This document shows, piece after piece, positions 36,535 to 42,747 of a stretch of DNA of 53,052 nucleotides. The DNA is taken from assembly GCA_016787345.1 (NCBI GenBank), contig JAEUUU010000097.1, forward strand, positions 1-53,052. Reading direction: 5' to 3'. The notes beneath the pieces were generated by a model that saw only the letters and a list, made by a program, of their open reading frames with translations, searched no databases and was not told the origin of the DNA. Numbering within the stretch: position 1 is the stretch's first letter; each line of letters opens with the position of its first letter. Source of the DNA: Saprospiraceae bacterium. Lineage in GTDB: Bacteria > Bacteroidota > Bacteroidia > Chitinophagales > Saprospiraceae. Position numbers and translations under genes: made by a program.

Positions 36535-38472
36535 TTATTTCTCAAGGCGTTCCATCAAACGCCCGGTAATGCGAAGGAAATCCATTTCTGTGATGATTCC
36601 TACCAGGTCTTTGCCTTTCACCACCGGCAAACAGCCTATTTTATTCACCCGCATTCGTTCCATGGCCTCCATGATCGGCGTGTCGGGGGTAGCGGTGATT
36701 GGTTTTTCAATCATGAGGTCATTGACGGTGGTAGGCGGTACGTTTTCCTGCAGGTGAATCATTTTGCTTTGACGGGTAAAATGGCGCAGCAGCATACGCG
36801 ACGACACCAGCCCGACCAATTCGCCTTTGTTGTTTTCCACCGGCATGTACCGGATACGGCGCCAGTCCATAATCTCGGCAACCAGTTCGACCAGGTCTTC
36901 TTTCTGAACGGTAAAAAGGTCGGTCGACATAAACTCTTCCACTTTCAGGCGGCTGGGTTTCCAGTTTTCCAGGTCGGCAGCGGTGGGTTCTTTCCAGGTA
37001 TGCACGGGTTTGTTGTCTTTTTGATTTTTGATAATGGCGGCAGTCACGCAGGTTACGGCTTCGTCGTTGGTCACTTCTTTCGACAGTGCGGTGAAAGAGC
37101 GCAGGGCCCAGCGAGCGCCGGTGACGTGGTCTTTGGCGCGCGCTTCGATGATGTCGAGGTATTTGTTAATATCGGTGCTGCGCACTTTGCGGTGTTTCAG
37201 ACCTTCCTTGGCCAGGGGGAGCAGCACTTTCAGGATGAGTTCGGTTGCGGATATTTTTTTGTCTTTAAACCAGGTAAAAGTGGTGTCGATACCGAATTTG
37301 GCTGCTTTCAGGAAATTGTCGCGGGCGTCCACAAAGTCCATTTGTTTGGTAATATCCTCGTGGTGCAATCCCATTCCGACCATGGCGCCCAGCCAGAAGG
37401 CGGCATTGGCCGTGGCGTCAACAGGCGTGGGACCAGCGGGTATGACGCGGTTTTCGATACGCAGGTGCGGTTTGCCATTCGGCGAAATGCCATAACAGGG
37501 CCGGTTCCAGCGATACACAGTCGAGTTGTGGATTTGCAAGGCACGCAATTTGGGCACTTTGCCCTCGGCGATCATGGCCATGGAATCTTCCTCGATGGCG
37601 CCGGCCAGGAGCACCCGGAAGCGGCTGATGTCCTCTCTGTATATTTGTGTAATATCACCCTGAAGCCAGCCCGAGCCGAAATTGACGCGGGGCAGGCGCT
37701 CGCGCATGTGATCGTTGGTGGTGCGGGTGTCCAAGCTTTGCTGGAACAAGGCGATACGGGTCTCGTGCCAGAGCCGCCGGCCGAACACCAGCGGGGAATT
37801 GGCAGAGATCGCAATCGTCGGGCCGGCCAGTACCTGCGCGATGTTGTACATTTTCACGAATTCCTTGGGTGATACCTGCAAATGCACCTGAAAACTGGTG
37901 TTGCAGGCTTCCAGGAGCGGCGAGTCGTGTTTGACCAGCAGTTCGTCGACGCCCTCGACCCGAAGCTCGAAGGACGTGCCCAGCAAGTGTTTTTGAATAG
38001 CGGCCATCAGCGCGAAGTAGCGATCCTTCGGCGTGAGGTTGTGCATCTCCAGGTCGTGTTTGCGCAGGGTCGGCAGAATGCCGCACAGGATAATGCTGGC
38101 GTCGAATTCGTCGAGGTATTTTTGTATAATATTAAGATATCCAAGATTTTCCGCTTCCATCTGGCTGAGGCAATCCCCGACAAATTCGCGTGGCGATAAG
38201 TTGGTTTCCAGATTGAATTTGGCGAGTTCGGTGACGCACCAGGGGTATTTGTCGCCCATCCGCTCAAGCACCTCCATATTGATTGTCGCAGGTTTGAGGG
38301 TCTGCTTGTTCACCAGGGCCATTTCCTGTTCCGCACCGATACGCGTGATATCATTCTCAAACCAGTTGTTGTTCAGCATGTATTCGAACGCCTGAACGTC
38401 TTCCAGAAGGGCCCGCACAAAGCGCTGCATCTCGTTTTGAGTTTCGACAGTATTTACTTTTTGAAATCCCAT
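36535..38472 (-). CDS. GCS2-like carboxylate-amine ligase fused to two CBS domains
   Basis: A 645-residue cytoplasmic fusion. Residues about 40-470 match the glutamate-cysteine ligase family 2 (YbdK/COG2170-type) fold: RIGAEQEMALVNKQTLKPAT, FNLETNLSPREF, FQVHLQVSPKEF, GPTIAISANSPLVFGRRLWH and LRIENRVIPAGPTPVDATAN. Family members make gamma-glutamyl or similar amide bonds with ATP. The last 145 residues hold two CBS domains (EEFMSTDLFTVQKEDLVELV and VNDLMIEKPITATPDTPIME), which usually bind adenosyl ligands and regulate the partner. The substrate is not known, and true glutathione synthesis should not be assumed. The start at 38472 follows a promoter at 38514-38545. Confidence 0.88.
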   Translation of the reverse strand: MGFQKVNTVETQNEMQRFVRALLEDVQAFEYMLNNNWFENDITRIGAEQEMALVNKQTLKPATINMEVLERMGDKYPWCVTELAKFNLETNLSPREFVGDCLSQMEAENLGYLNIIQKYLDEFDASIILCGILPTLRKHDLEMHNLTPKDRYFALMAAIQKHLLGTSFELRVEGVDELLVKHDSPLLEACNTSFQVHLQVSPKEFVKMYNIAQVLAGPTIAISANSPLVFGRRLWHETRIALFQQSLDTRTTNDHMRERLPRVNFGSGWLQGDITQIYREDISRFRVLLAGAIEEDSMAMIAEGKVPKLRALQIHNSTVYRWNRPCYGISPNGKPHLRIENRVIPAGPTPVDATANAAFWLGAMVGMGLHHEDITKQMDFVDARDNFLKAAKFGIDTTFTWFKDKKISATELILKVLLPLAKEGLKHRKVRSTDINKYLDIIEARAKDHVTGARWALRSFTALSKEVTNDEAVTCVTAAIIKNQKDNKPVHTWKEPTAADLENWKPSRLKVEEFMSTDLFTVQKEDLVELVAEIMDWRRIRYMPVENNKGELVGLVSSRMLLRHFTRQSKMIHLQENVPPTTVNDLMIEKPITATPDTPIMEAMERMRVNKIGCLPVVKGKDLVGIITEMDFLRITGRLMERLEK

Positions 38473-39318: not shown

Positions 39319-40848
39319 ATGAGAACACTGCAGGAACTAAAATACCCCATAGGTCAATTTACATACGGCCAGTCATATACATTTGATGAAACCAGAAAAA
39401 ACATCAAATCTATTGCACGTACTCCGAAACAACTAAAAAAACTATTGAAAAAGGCCAATAACACCCAATTGGAGTCATCATACAGAAAAGGAGGGTGGAC
39501 TATAAGGCAAATAGTAAATCATCTAGTTGATAGCCATGTAAATGCTTATGTTCGCATGAAGCTGGCTGTTACTGAAAATGCACCGATTATAAAGCCTTAT
39601 GAAGAAAAATTATGGGCAAATACAGAAGACGGCAAAAGCGGCTCTGTAAAATCAGCAATAAAATTATTGTCTGCCCTGCATCGTCGATGGGTAGAATTTA
39701 TGGAATCCCTGTCAGAAGAAGAACTGGAGCGCGTCTATTTTCACCCGGCCAATCAACGACATGTTCCATTGACCGAATCTATCGCCCTCTATTCCTGGCA
39801 TTGTCGTCACCATCTTGCACATATCCGGATTGCCCTGAATCAGGAGGTCGAAACAAAAGAGGACGACAAACCGGGCCAGTCGACTGCCAAAGCCCGCAAA
39901 GGAAGAAAACCCGCACAACGCACGGCCGCTGCGACGGAAAAAGCAGCCCAGCCTGCTACTGAATCAAAACCGGCAAAAGGCCCGGCCCCGGATGAAAAAC
40001 CTCGCCGCACCCGCCGTACCAAAGCCGAAATGGAAGCCGTTCGCGCCGCAGAAGCCGCCAAACCGAAACTGACCCGCGCCGAAATTCTCGCCAAAGCCCG
40101 CGCCGCTCGTCAAGCTAAATCTGCCGACAAACCTGCCCCGGCAGCAAAGGCAACCAAACCCGCCAAGGCAGCCAAGCCGGCCAAGGCCGAAGGGCCGAAA
40201 CTGACCCGCGCTGAAATTCTCGCCAAAGCCCGCGCCGCCCGCCAGGCCAAATCTGCCGACAAACCCGCCAAGGCAACCAAACCCGCCAAAGCAGCCAAGC
40301 CAGCCAAGGCCGAAGGCCCGAAACTGACCCGCGCTGAAATACTCGCCAAAGCCCGCGCCGCCCGCCAGGCTAAATCTGCCGACAAACCCGCCAAGGCAAC
40401 CAAACCGGCCAAGGCCGCCAAGCCAGCCAAAGCCGACGGACCGAAACTGAGTCGCGCCGAGATTCTCGCCAAAGCCCGCGCTGCCCGTCAGGCCAAATCT
40501 GCCGACAAACCCGCAACGGCTGCCAAAACCTCCAAACCGGCCAAGACAGCCAAACCGGCAAAACCCGAAGGCCCGAAACTGACCCGCGCCGAAATTCTCG
40601 CCAAAGCCCGCGCCGCCCGTCAGGCAAAATCCGCCGACAAACCCGCAACGGCTAAAAAGGCCGCCAAAGCCGAAGGCCCGAAACTGAGTCGCGCCGAAAT
40701 TCTCGCCAAAGCCCGCGCCGCCCGTCAAGCCAAAGCAGCCGACAAACCTGCACCGGCTAAAAAAGCGGCAAAAGCCGACGGACCCAAACTGAGTCGCGCC
40801 GAAATCCTTGAAAAAGCGCGCGCTGCCCGTCAGGCTAAGAAGAAATAA
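39319..40848 (+). CDS. YfiT/BstA-type DinB-fold protein fused to a histone-H1-like repeat tail
   Basis: A 509-residue two-part protein. Residues 1-172 are a YfiT-type DinB-superfamily domain (putative metal-dependent thiol transferase): YRKGGWTIRQIVNHLVDSH, YSWHCRHHLAHIRIAL, with metal ligands fitting His68, His161 and His165. That family is normally about 170-180 residues long. From about residue 175 the protein changes to a Lys/Ala/Pro-rich tail of about 330 residues, with one degenerate unit (RRTKAEMEAVRAAEAAK) and seven repeats of KLTRAEILAKARAARQAK. The tail resembles bacterial histone-H1-like proteins and is probably DNA- or RNA-binding. The base composition jumps at the same place: about 35% G+C in a sampled line of the N-terminal part against 68% in the tail. 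No known family has this architecture that I can name. Confidence 0.85.
   Translation: MRTLQELKYPIGQFTYGQSYTFDETRKNIKSIARTPKQLKKLLKKANNTQLESSYRKGGWTIRQIVNHLVDSHVNAYVRMKLAVTENAPIIKPYEEKLWANTEDGKSGSVKSAIKLLSALHRRWVEFMESLSEEELERVYFHPANQRHVPLTESIALYSWHCRHHLAHIRIALNQEVETKEDDKPGQSTAKARKGRKPAQRTAAATEKAAQPATESKPAKGPAPDEKPRRTRRTKAEMEAVRAAEAAKPKLTRAEILAKARAARQAKSADKPAPAAKATKPAKAAKPAKAEGPKLTRAEILAKARAARQAKSADKPAKATKPAKAAKPAKAEGPKLTRAEILAKARAARQAKSADKPAKATKPAKAAKPAKADGPKLSRAEILAKARAARQAKSADKPATAAKTSKPAKTAKPAKPEGPKLTRAEILAKARAARQAKSADKPATAKKAAKAEGPKLSRAEILAKARAARQAKAADKPAPAKKAAKADGPKLSRAEILEKARAARQAKKK
40066..40848 (+). repeat. Seven tandem coding repeats of 105-132 nt
   Basis: Units begin at 40066, 40198, 40321, 40444, 40576, 40681 and 40786, giving periods of 132, 123, 123, 132, 105 and 105 nt. 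Each starts with a codon string for KL(T/S)RAEILAKARAARQAK and ends in an AKP-rich linker of varying length. Units 2 and 3 differ at few positions, suggesting recent expansion. Confidence 0.9.
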
Positions 40849-40873: not shown

Positions 40874-40917
40874 AAACTGAGCCATTTCGATTACCGAATG
40901 GCTCAGTTTTATTTTTA
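40874..40917 (+). terminator. Rho-independent terminator after the YfiT fusion gene
   Basis: AAACTGAGCCATT (40874-40886) pairs with AATGGCTCAGTTT (40897-40909), 10-nt loop, followed by TATTTTTA. Confidence 0.88.
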
Positions 40918-40978: not shown

Positions 40979-41938
40979 ATGCCCTCTTCACCACGCATAA
41001 TCGGCCAGTTTGGCGGCCATACTCCCGGCGCTTTAATCCTGGCATTCGGCGCCATTCATGGCAACGAGCCGGCCGGAGTCAGGGCGCTGGAAGAGGTGTT
41101 CCGATTGTTGGAATACCATGCCGTCAATGATCCAGGGTTTGATTTTCAGGGCAAAATCGTCGGTGTTCTGGGCAACCGCTGGGCATACGCAGCACAAAAA
41201 CGCTTTATTGAAAAAGACCTCAACCGGCAATGGACGCCCGAAAACATCGCGCGCATCAGCGGAGTGGATCCTATGAATTTGCACGCCGAAGACCGCGAGA
41301 TTGGCGAATTGCTGAACGTCATTAAAGAAGAGGTGGATGCCAGCCGGCCCGAAGCGCTGATCCTGCTTGATCTGCACACCACCTCCGCAGGTGGGGGGAT
41401 ATTTTCGCTACCGGCACAAGACGAAGCAAGCCTCCGCCTGGCCAAAGAACTGGCGGCCCCGGTGGTTCTGGGACTTGCCGACGGCATCCAGGGCACTTTG
41501 CTGCATTTTGCCGCCGATCGCGCTTTTTCCGAAATTCAGGCTATGCCGAAATACGTTATGGGGGTCGCTTTTGAAGCCGGGCAACACAATGATCCCGAAT
41601 CGGTCAACCGCTCGGTAGCGGTGCTTGTCAACTGCCTGCGCGCAACCGGCTGCATCGATCCCGAAGCGCTTCGAACTTCCGACGAAAATTTGCTCAACGA
41701 TTACGCCGCGGCCCTGCCGAAAGTGACCCGACTGCGGTATGCGCATACGATTCGCCCCATCGACCAGTTCCGGATGCGCCCGGGCTATGTCAATTTTCAA
41801 CCGATCCAACGCAGCGAACATTTGGCCGACGACGTGCGCGGCCCTATTTACGCCCCCGACAACGGCCTGATCCTCATGCCCTTGTATCAAAACCAGGGTT
41901 CCGACGGCTTTTTTATCGTGCAGGAAATGTTCGTCTGA
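40979..41938 (+). CDS. Succinylglutamate desuccinylase/aspartoacylase family hydrolase
   Basis: A 319-residue zinc carboxypeptidase-fold protein of the AstE/AspA family, which cleaves N-acyl groups from amino acids. The metal-binding motif is AIHGNEPAG (His and Glu), the third ligand lies in LLDLHTTSAGGG, and NRWAYAAQKRFIEKDLNRQW is the family's substrate loop. There is no signal peptide, so it is cytoplasmic. Neighbours give no pathway. The convergent DjlA-like gene ends 8 nt after its stop. Confidence 0.88.
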   Translation: MPSSPRIIGQFGGHTPGALILAFGAIHGNEPAGVRALEEVFRLLEYHAVNDPGFDFQGKIVGVLGNRWAYAAQKRFIEKDLNRQWTPENIARISGVDPMNLHAEDREIGELLNVIKEEVDASRPEALILLDLHTTSAGGGIFSLPAQDEASLRLAKELAAPVVLGLADGIQGTLLHFAADRAFSEIQAMPKYVMGVAFEAGQHNDPESVNRSVAVLVNCLRATGCIDPEALRTSDENLLNDYAAALPKVTRLRYAHTIRPIDQFRMRPGYVNFQPIQRSEHLADDVRGPIYAPDNGLILMPLYQNQGSDGFFIVQEMFV

Positions 41939-41946
41939 ACGAGGGC

Positions 41947-42747
41947 CTACTTCCTCGCTTCCATGATTTTTTCGTACGCCTCATTGATCTGCTGAAACTT
42001 CTCCTTGGCATGGCGAAGCGCATCCGGAGAGGCATTGCGCGCGGCTACCTGATCGGGGTGCCACTGAAAGGCCAGCGAGCGAAACTTCTTTTTGATCGCA
42101 TCGAGCGATTCGCTCGGTTGAGCGCCCAGAATGGCGTAATAAGGATCGAGCGGCGACCAGCGCTGATCGGTTCCGGGGGGCATTTGGTAATAACGGCTTT
42201 TGATCCGGTCGAACTGCAACCGGCCAATGTGAAATATGCCCGACGCCCGCAGCAGCAACTCCTCTTCGCGCGGGTGCAAACCGCCGTCGGCTGCCGACAT
42301 GCTGAACAGCAAATCCATCATGTTCAGCACGTAGTGCCGCTCTTTTTCAAAATCGCGGTAAAATGCCCGGGCATAGGCATCGAAGGGTTCGGGAGAGTCT
42401 TTGACCTGATTCCAGATACGGATCGAATATGCCCGGTTGGCATCCGTGAGCCGAAACTGATAACGCATCAGGCGCTCCATGTGGTTGATTTCCGAACGAT
42501 TGACCGTGCCGTCGGCCTTGGCCAATTTTGCACACAGGGCGATCACGTGGCGTAAAAACTCGCCCTGACGCCGTTGAAAAGCCTTGTACTGCGCTTCTCC
42601 CGCCTCCTGTTCAAGGGGCCTGTCGATCAAAGCATAACCCAAAATGGAGCCAATAACAAACCCCAGAATGGCGCCAAACGGCATTCCTATGCTATCGCCC
42701 ACAAAAAGGCCGATCAGACCCAGTATGACTTTTCCCTTGTGCTGCAC
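41947..42747 (-). CDS. DjlA-like co-chaperone (membrane anchor, TerB-like and J domains)
   Basis: A 266-residue protein with the DjlA plan. The N-terminal Gly-rich hydrophobic stretch (GKVILGLIGLFVGDSIGMPF and GAILGFVIGSILGYALI, 5-42) is the membrane anchor. Residues 60-180 are a TerB-like helical domain (LAKADGTVNRSEINHMERLM, LLFSMSAADGGLHPREEELL). The C-terminal J domain (DPYYAILGAQPSESLDAIKK to AYEKIMEARK) has the HPD motif in FQWHPDQV, which stimulates DnaK's ATPase. It probably recruits DnaK at the inner membrane. A perfect -7 box lies at 42790-42797. Confidence 0.9.
   Translation of the reverse strand: MQHKGKVILGLIGLFVGDSIGMPFGAILGFVIGSILGYALIDRPLEQEAGEAQYKAFQRRQGEFLRHVIALCAKLAKADGTVNRSEINHMERLMRYQFRLTDANRAYSIRIWNQVKDSPEPFDAYARAFYRDFEKERHYVLNMMDLLFSMSAADGGLHPREEELLLRASGIFHIGRLQFDRIKSRYYQMPPGTDQRWSPLDPYYAILGAQPSESLDAIKKKFRSLAFQWHPDQVAARNASPDALRHAKEKFQQINEAYEKIMEARK

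What the first reader, a model, noticed from the sequence alone, without database searches (positions are those of the whole stretch)
39319..40848. Enzyme domain fused to an H1-like repeat tail at a sharp composition break
A YfiT/DinB-type domain of standard length (metal triad His68, His161, His165) joins a 330-residue KLTRAEILAKARAARQAK repeat tail. Sampled lines change from about 35% to about 68% G+C right at the domain border near base 39845. An AT-rich segment starting near 38.5 kb (including the AlkA glycosylase) therefore seems to end inside a reading frame, as if imported DNA had been joined in frame to a resident nucleic-acid-binding tail. It may tether a thiol- or alkylation-linked enzyme to DNA, next to an alkylation-repair gene.
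Basis: partly seen in the sequence, partly recalled or inferred. Interest (0 to 1): 0.75.

Follow-up and report, generated by a model that had tools for sequence, protein, structure and literature searches.

The report
Thiol-transferase-like enzyme with histone-like tail
In one genus of uncultured Bacteroidota, a small enzyme of the bacillithiol-transferase family carries a long, flexible, DNA-binding-like tail that related genera lack, so it may be an enzyme kept on the chromosome rather than a piece of recently imported DNA.

Summary
The fusion is real: a 172-residue YfiT/BstA domain (39319-39834) plus a 337-residue Lys/Ala/Pro tail with seven KL(T/S)RAEIL(A/E)KARAARQAK units. The composition step is real but gentler than stated (90-base bins 0.36-0.48, then 0.52-0.67); +0.140 of its +0.217 follows from the tail's amino acids. 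In-frame import fails: the tail is attached in 31 of 32 genus loci found (the other is cut by a contig end), all four neighbouring genes stand in the same order in 14, and the nearest relatives on the tree lack the tail. What stands out is how the tail evolves: basic throughout the genus, but with motifs that switch between AT-hook-like and H1-like units under purifying selection, on a domain that is itself more basic (mean net charge +7.3 against -4.4 in other genera of the family). I read it as a YfiT/BstA-type metal-dependent thiol transferase held on DNA, or another polyanion, by an HMGA/H1-like tail. Anatomy and conservation are shown; DNA binding and the reaction are inferred. AlkA lies next door in 21 of 30 loci that could be judged, so the alkylation link is only suggestive. 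New variant of a known kind.

The parts
39319..39834 (+). YfiT/BstA (DinB-superfamily) enzyme domain, residues 1-172; His68, His161, His165
39835..40848 (+). Lys/Ala/Pro-rich tail, residues 173-509, plus stop codon
39901..39912 (+). AT-hook-like GRKP core near the junction (residues 195-198, in KGRKPA)
   Evidence: non-canonical core, single copy in this tail
40003..40056 (+). RRTRRTKAEMEAVRAAEA segment; the RRT-type motif is found in 14 of 30 genus tails
40063..40839 (+). seven H1-like units PKL(T/S)RAEIL(A/E)KARAARQAK on linkers, many with KPAK; predicted as separate short helices
38641..39246 (+). AlkA-like HhH-GPD DNA glycosylase gene, 72 bases upstream of the fusion gene
36535..38472 (-). 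divergent gene: GCS2 (glutamate-cysteine ligase family 2) with CBS domains; frequent neighbour in the genus
40979..41938 (+). AstE/AspA-like deacylase gene; frequent downstream neighbour in the genus

Best explanation
A YfiT/BstA-type metal-dependent thiol S-transferase that one Saprospiraceae genus keeps on nucleic acid, most likely chromosomal DNA, through a C-terminal tail that behaves like HMGA/H1 tails: many short basic units (AT-hook-like GR(K/R)P/GPKP cores and/or 16-residue basic helices) on flexible linkers. Multivalent weak binding, not one fixed sequence, is what is conserved. The enzyme domain is intact and more basic than its relatives. Inferred job: conjugating or hydrolysing electrophiles close to DNA, with bacillithiol as likely co-substrate. 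Shown: the fusion, its conservation in the genus, its single clade, motif turnover, purifying selection, the domain's charge difference, the intact metal triad, a BshC gene. Inferred: DNA as the ligand, the reaction, the protective role.
For: Enzyme: NF009807 211.9 bits over a 160 cut-off; model matches B. subtilis YfiT 1rxq, TM 0.93 on the target, rmsd 1.4; metal triad in 123 of 123 aligned orthologues; bshC in the own genome, 429 bits against a cut-off of 265.8. Tail: net +18.7 per 100 aa, 7% bulky hydrophobic residues; modelled as a domain (pLDDT block means 83-98 over residues 1-180), then eight short helices joined by linkers mostly under 50. Conserved property, changing sequence: 62 RG(RP/RKP/PKP/RRP) cores in 17 of 30 tails against 0.33 expected in shuffles, and 63 H1-like units in 15 of 30 against 0.00; with looser cores, 31 of 31 tails hold a hook-like core or an H1-like unit, with at least 9 changes of type on the tree. 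Selection: tail pN/pS 0.17-0.57 in 9 of 9 species comparisons; H1-like units 0.24 outside the search pattern. Domain net charge +4 to +11 in 31 genus loci, -15 to +7 (mean -4.4) in 34 loci of other genera of the family, about 7 per 100 aa apart, against 0.3 (median) to 1.5 (mean) per 100 aa for sampled ORFs. Tree: tailed sequences on one side of a branch (SH-aLRT 91), nearest two untailed. Precedent: M. xanthus CarD still functions when its HMGA-like tail is replaced by human HMGA, H1 or the H1 C-terminus (passages of PMC8156234), the kind of exchange seen here across species.
Against: No binding or activity data. The window's own tail has one non-canonical AT-hook-like core; canonical RGRP occurs in only 4 of 31 tails. 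Basic disordered tails also bind RNA and polyphosphate. A basic domain does not need a tail: two untailed loci of genus g42 reach +4.2 and +4.8 per 100 aa (L194, L198), and one class-level untailed domain has net +6 (L221). The window domain's charge is not extreme: 12.6% of 516 genus ORFs are as basic or more. Tail and charge lie on one stem branch, so their association is one event. Pfam finds no settled DNA-binding domain in six tails scanned: some hits exceed their whole-protein cut-offs (DUF4165, HLH, RBR), but with no stretch passing alone. A B. [quoted passage not shown]
Confidence: 0.56

Rival explanations
1. The tail targets polyphosphate (or another storage-granule surface) rather than DNA, as the H1-like protein AlgP associates with polyP granules and PhaF is thought to tie PHA granules to the nucleoid.
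For: AlgP has an H1-like KPAA tail and associates with polyP granules (PMC9239181, passages); the window tail is similarly K/A/P-rich.
Against: No KPAA in the window tail; hook-like cores, which point to the DNA minor groove, occur in 17 of 30 tails by the stricter pattern and 23 of 31 by the looser one. AlgP is itself described as DNA-binding.
Confidence: 0.15
2. The tail binds RNA or ribosomes and localises the enzyme there.
For: Basic low-complexity tails can bind RNA (general knowledge); one relative's tail (L095) gives a Pfam 'RBR' RNA-binding-region hit of 34.8 bits, cut-off 24.
Against: AT-hook cores are a DNA minor-groove motif (PMC11354804 passages); the RBR hit has no stretch passing alone and was seen in 1 of 6 tails scanned.
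Confidence: 0.12
3. The tail is a low-complexity expansion with no specific function (repeat slippage tolerated at a C-terminus).
For: Copy number changes fast: three H1-like units in the tail piece of G025, whose domain is 98% identical, seven here; complete tails run from 132 to 449 aa. Tails are less constrained than domains.
Against: pN/pS below 1 in 9 of 9 species comparisons (0.17-0.57) and among repeat units; tail present in all 31 genus loci whose contig runs past codon 174; more basic domain in the same genus.
Confidence: 0.12
4. One reading: imported AT-rich DNA joined recently in frame to a resident tail.
For: Only 1 of 229 sampled own ORFs has a lower GC3 than the domain; part of the step (+0.077) is synonymous.
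Against: Fusion and gene order are shared in the genus, as is AlkA's low GC3; no other copy of the tail found in the own genome; the window domain sits inside the tailed group on the tree.
Confidence: 0.03

Closest known systems
YfiT/BstA bacillithiol transferases (S-transferase-like, formerly DinB/YfiT, superfamily)
   Same: Domain, length, fold, His triad; family cut-off passed
   Different: In 34 same-family loci of other genera the median is 6 residues after the domain; here 337 residues of basic tail follow and the domain is more basic
CarD of Myxococcus xanthus
   Same: Structured domain plus intrinsically disordered HMGA-like basic tail, replaceable by H1 (PMC8156234, passages)
   Different: CarD is a transcription factor that binds RNA polymerase and keeps reduced function without its tail; here the head is an unrelated metal-dependent enzyme domain
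AlgP and PhaF of Pseudomonas
   Same: K/A/P-rich disordered C-terminal repeats, H1-like, linked to nucleoid or granules (PMC9239181, passages)
   Different: KPAA repeats, absent here; different heads
ClbS (colibactin self-resistance protein; DinB-like fold solved with dsDNA, 7mtl)
   Same: DinB-type fold crystallised with DNA (title) that detoxifies colibactin by ring opening (PMC10693628, passages)
   Different: Weak fold match only (E 0.22); ClbS lacks the metal motif

Membership tests
YfiT/BstA bacillithiol transferase (NF009807) | Sequence model above curated cut-off | tested here: met
   211.9 bits vs 160
YfiT/BstA bacillithiol transferase (NF009807) | Four-helix-bundle DinB/YfiT fold | tested here: met
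   model vs 1rxq TM 0.93 on the target
YfiT/BstA bacillithiol transferase (NF009807) | Metal-binding His triad | tested here: met
   H68/H161/H165 in 31 of 31 genus, 34 of 34 family and 58 of 58 other sequences
YfiT/BstA bacillithiol transferase (NF009807) | Host makes bacillithiol | tested here: inconclusive
   bshC above cut-off in the own genome; bshA and bshB not searched
YfiT/BstA bacillithiol transferase (NF009807) | Bacillithiol transfer activity | not testable with these tools
   -
HMGA/AT-hook protein | GRP core flanked by basic residues | tested here: inconclusive
   window: one GRKP; genus: GRP in 6, RGRP in 4, GRKP in 9, GPKP in 7 of 31 tails
AlgP/PhaF H1-like tail | Tandem KPAA repeats | tested here: not met
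   0 KPAA in the window tail
AlgP/PhaF H1-like tail | Disordered, K/A/P-rich basic C-terminus | tested here: met
   A 0.31, K 0.20, P 0.09; linkers mostly pLDDT <50, but repeat units predicted helical
DNA-binding protein | Binds DNA | not testable with these tools
   -

The most novel reading that the evidence does not exclude
A chromosome-tethered detoxifying enzyme: a bacillithiol S-transferase held on DNA so that electrophiles are quenched where they would alkylate bases, next to (in most judged loci of the genus) the glycosylase that removes such bases. Evolution here repeats the CarD tail-swap experiment, exchanging HMGA-like and H1-like tails on one enzyme because only multivalent basic disorder matters, while the enzyme's own surface turned basic to fit.
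Probability: 0.3. Interest if true: 0.75.

Novelty: new variant of a known kind. Interest (0 to 1): 0.52.

Why it matters
DinB/YfiT enzymes are numerous and their role remains poorly understood (PMC10693628 passages). A genus in which one of them is consistently fitted with a nucleic-acid-type tail, and has a more basic domain, offers a direct handle on where such an enzyme works. It also gives a natural series for asking which property of H1/HMGA-like tails is selected, since motif type changes among species while positive charge persists.

Tried and rejected
Recent in-frame import: rejected. Tail as a resident module used by other proteins: no other match in the own genome up to E 10; HMMER may suppress such biased sequence, so a charge-based scan of 220 sampled own ORFs was added: two hits, the window gene and an 812-codon frame (L130) that I take, by judgement and not by a test, for a spurious frame. 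Same layout elsewhere: in 198 class genomes, the 64 non-own matches all end at query residue 169-183, and the four with the longest open frames end 3-11 residues after the aligned domain. In one search (166 of 248 family genomes match; match list cut) the four longest listed frames outside the genus (G248, G558, G488, G433) have 2, 8, 79 and 6 residues after the domain; the 79 of L174 are not Lys-rich. Short Lys-rich ends (26-39 aa) occur in order family f3 as their own clade: read as parallel, not ancestral. L115 (G053, family f18) has a 29-residue K/E-rich end. Three other DinB-type loci of the genus with long frames show no such tail. PDB sequence search with the tail: 0 hits at E 0.01. Pfam hits in the tails judged low-complexity noise. 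Literature: searches listed nothing that by title or abstract start describes a tailed YfiT/BstA; that is the extent of my claim that none is in print, and the library holds only open-licence papers. The long reverse-strand frame over the tail I take for a repeat artefact, by judgement.

Results against my reading: 9 of 30 judged loci lack AlkA upstream and 2 could not be judged; the window has little AT-hook signal; untailed domains can be as basic (L194, L198; L221); 6 of 36 genus genomes showed no orthologous domain, three of these (G013, G030, G033) with only a tail piece at or near a contig edge; 9 of 32 tails are cut by contig ends and one (L108) holds a run of N, so motif types and the count of 9 changes are approximate; the tree is a quick search without bootstrap. 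Controls have limits: the genus ORF sample includes the fusion genes and their neighbours; the looser hook cores were not shuffled; pN/pS values are uncorrected proportions, and one locus (L107) serves in two of the nine comparisons. Dropped rows: L102 (tail cut at 2 aa) from the motif, charge-test and tree sets; L163 and some others from the structure alignment; L031/L032 duplicate G025/G017 and were left out of the 'other' group though still in it. After checking against the calls I lowered the main confidence from 0.58 to 0.56 because of the basic untailed domains, and raised the no-function rival by 0.02.

Full report
WHAT IS THERE. The frame 39319-40848 encodes 509 residues. Residues 1-172 are a complete YfiT-family domain: Pfam DinB_2 E 5.9e-20, NCBIfam NF009807 211.9 bits against a cut-off of 160, B. 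subtilis YfiT 1rxq E 5.2e-45 by sequence and TM 0.93 on the target by predicted fold. His68, His161 and His165 are present in 123 of 123 aligned orthologues (31 genus, 34 same-family, 58 other). The remaining 337 residues are 31% Ala, 20% Lys, 9% Pro, 9% Arg and hold seven KL(T/S)RAEIL(A/E)KARAARQAK units, many KPAK linkers, one KGRKPA near the junction and one RRTRRTKAEMEA segment. The model shows a confident domain, then eight short helices separated by linkers mostly under pLDDT 50.

COMPOSITION. Domain GC is 0.405, tail 0.622; in 90-base bins the rise starts in the last third of the domain. Re-encoding the tail with the domain's own codon choices predicts +0.140 of the +0.217 difference; +0.077 is synonymous. 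In 29 of 29 genus loci with at least 100 aa of tail the sign is the same, mean +0.116, of which +0.105 is expected from amino acids. The domain's GC3 of 0.349 is still remarkable in this genome (1 of 229 sampled ORFs lower; AlkA 7 of 229). AlkA's GC3 is below both the GCS and the AspA gene in 13 of 13 loci that hold all four genes; the YfiT domain's is below GCS in 12 and below AspA in 11 of 13 (values). I read this as a long-standing local feature, not a fresh junction.

RELATIVES. Of 36 same-genus genomes, 30 hold the orthologous domain; one more genus member, G372, appeared (locus L182), giving 32 loci with the window. Tails follow in 31 of 32. The other, G025, ends at codon 174 at a contig end, with a 173-aa tail piece on a second contig beside the AspA gene. 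The 23 complete tails have 132-449 residues. Three further genus genomes show only a tail piece at or near a contig edge, two of them beside AspA. AlkA lies upstream on the same strand in 21 loci, is absent in 9 with at least 4 kb of upstream sequence, and cannot be judged in 2. GCS(-)/AlkA/YfiT-tail/AspA is complete and in the same order in 14 of 32 loci (13, L182).

OUTSIDE THE GENUS. In 34 same-family loci of other genera (26 best matches plus 8 taken mostly for long frames) the median length after the domain is 6 residues; one has 79, not Lys-rich (L174). In the class search the 64 non-own matches in 198 genomes all end at query residue 169-183, and the four longest frames end 3-11 residues after the aligned domain. 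On a 90-row quick tree the 31 genus sequences form one side of a branch (SH-aLRT 91) beside two untailed sequences of one other genus (L158, L162; joint branch 83); five sequences of another order family with 26-39-residue Lys-rich ends form a separate clade (97). Most simply, the long tail arose once, on the stem of this genus, and short basic ends arose in parallel elsewhere.

THE TAIL EVOLVES IN A TELLING WAY. Among 30 tails (L102 left out, L182 not included) there are 62 RG(RP/RKP/PKP/RRP) cores in 17 tails (0.33 expected in composition-preserving shuffles), 63 H1-like units in 15 (0.00), 24 RRT-type motifs in 14 (0.07) and 20 SPERMAEIRA-type motifs in 9 (0.00); one tail (L106) has none of the motifs by these patterns. 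With L182 and looser cores, which were not shuffled, 31 of 31 tails hold a hook-like core or an H1-like unit: 15 hook only, 8 H1 only, 8 both, with at least 9 changes of type on the tree; contig-cut tails may inflate this. Despite the turnover, net charge is positive in 30 of 30 (+7.5 to +21.3 per 100 aa). Tail pN/pS is 0.17-0.57 in nine species comparisons, against 0.04-0.12 for the domain; among repeat copies it is 0.14 pooled, 0.24 for the H1-like unit when only residues outside the search pattern are counted.

THE DOMAIN DIFFERS TOO. Net charge of the domain is +4 to +11 (mean 7.3) in 31 genus loci, -15 to +7 (mean -4.4) in 34 same-family loci and -16 to +5 (mean -4.3) in 61 others (Mann-Whitney 1.5e-11 for the first two, not corrected for relatedness). 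The largest contributors include positions 111, 115, 18, 44, 41, 45, 30, 87, 26 and 40. A sample of ORFs shows a small general shift (median -0.43 against -0.72, mean +0.45 against -1.09 per 100 aa; 516 and 284 ORFs). Against this: all members share one stem, so it is one event; 12.6% of genus ORFs are as basic as the window's domain; and a basic domain occurs without a tail in genus g42 (L194, L198) and in L221.

MECHANISM. Inference: the tail gives multivalent, sequence-tolerant binding to nucleic acid, most likely DNA, and the enzyme acts there. Precedents, each seen in passages: CarD still functions with its HMGA-like tail replaced by human HMGA or H1, and partly without it (PMC8156234); AlgP's tail is needed for even spacing of polyP granules and PhaF's is thought to tie PHA granules to the nucleoid (PMC9239181); most AT-hooks have a GRP core with basic flanks, and AT-hook-like variants carry extra residues (PMC11354804). 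B. subtilis BstA-H are described as bacillithiol transferases with metal-dependent activity, but a strain lacking all eight grew normally under the tested stressors (PMC5815605, abstract and passages). ClbS, a DinB-like protein solved with dsDNA (7mtl, title listed), detoxifies colibactin (PMC10693628, passages), so action of this fold near DNA has a parallel. Own-genome bshC passes its cut-off; bshA and bshB were not searched.

VERDICT. Real feature, wrong origin story, sensible functional hunch. Interest 0.52; new variant of a known kind. The AlkA link is suggestive only.

Noticed in passing
window 40874-40916: Inverted repeat AAACTGAGCCATT/AATGGCTCAGTTT followed by a T-rich run just after the fusion gene, terminator-like by eye.
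   Followed up: no
L102 / L118 (G025 contigs C264 and C349): In the nearest relative (domain 98% identical) the assembly breaks at the domain-tail junction, domain on one contig and a three-unit tail piece on another beside AspA.
   Followed up: partly
L113, L114, L179, L180, L181: Another family of the order has short (26-39 aa) Lys-rich ends on the same enzyme, a parallel case of the same trend.
   Followed up: partly
window 36535-38472 (-): GCS2 (glutamate-cysteine ligase family 2) gene with two CBS stretches beside a thiol-transferase-type gene, a frequent neighbour in the genus.
   Followed up: no
window 41947-42747 (-): TerB plus DnaJ domain protein next to an adenine-deaminase-like gene; both also sit near this locus in several relatives.
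   Followed up: no
L194, L198 (genus g42): Untailed YfiT domains as basic as those of the tailed genus.
   Followed up: no
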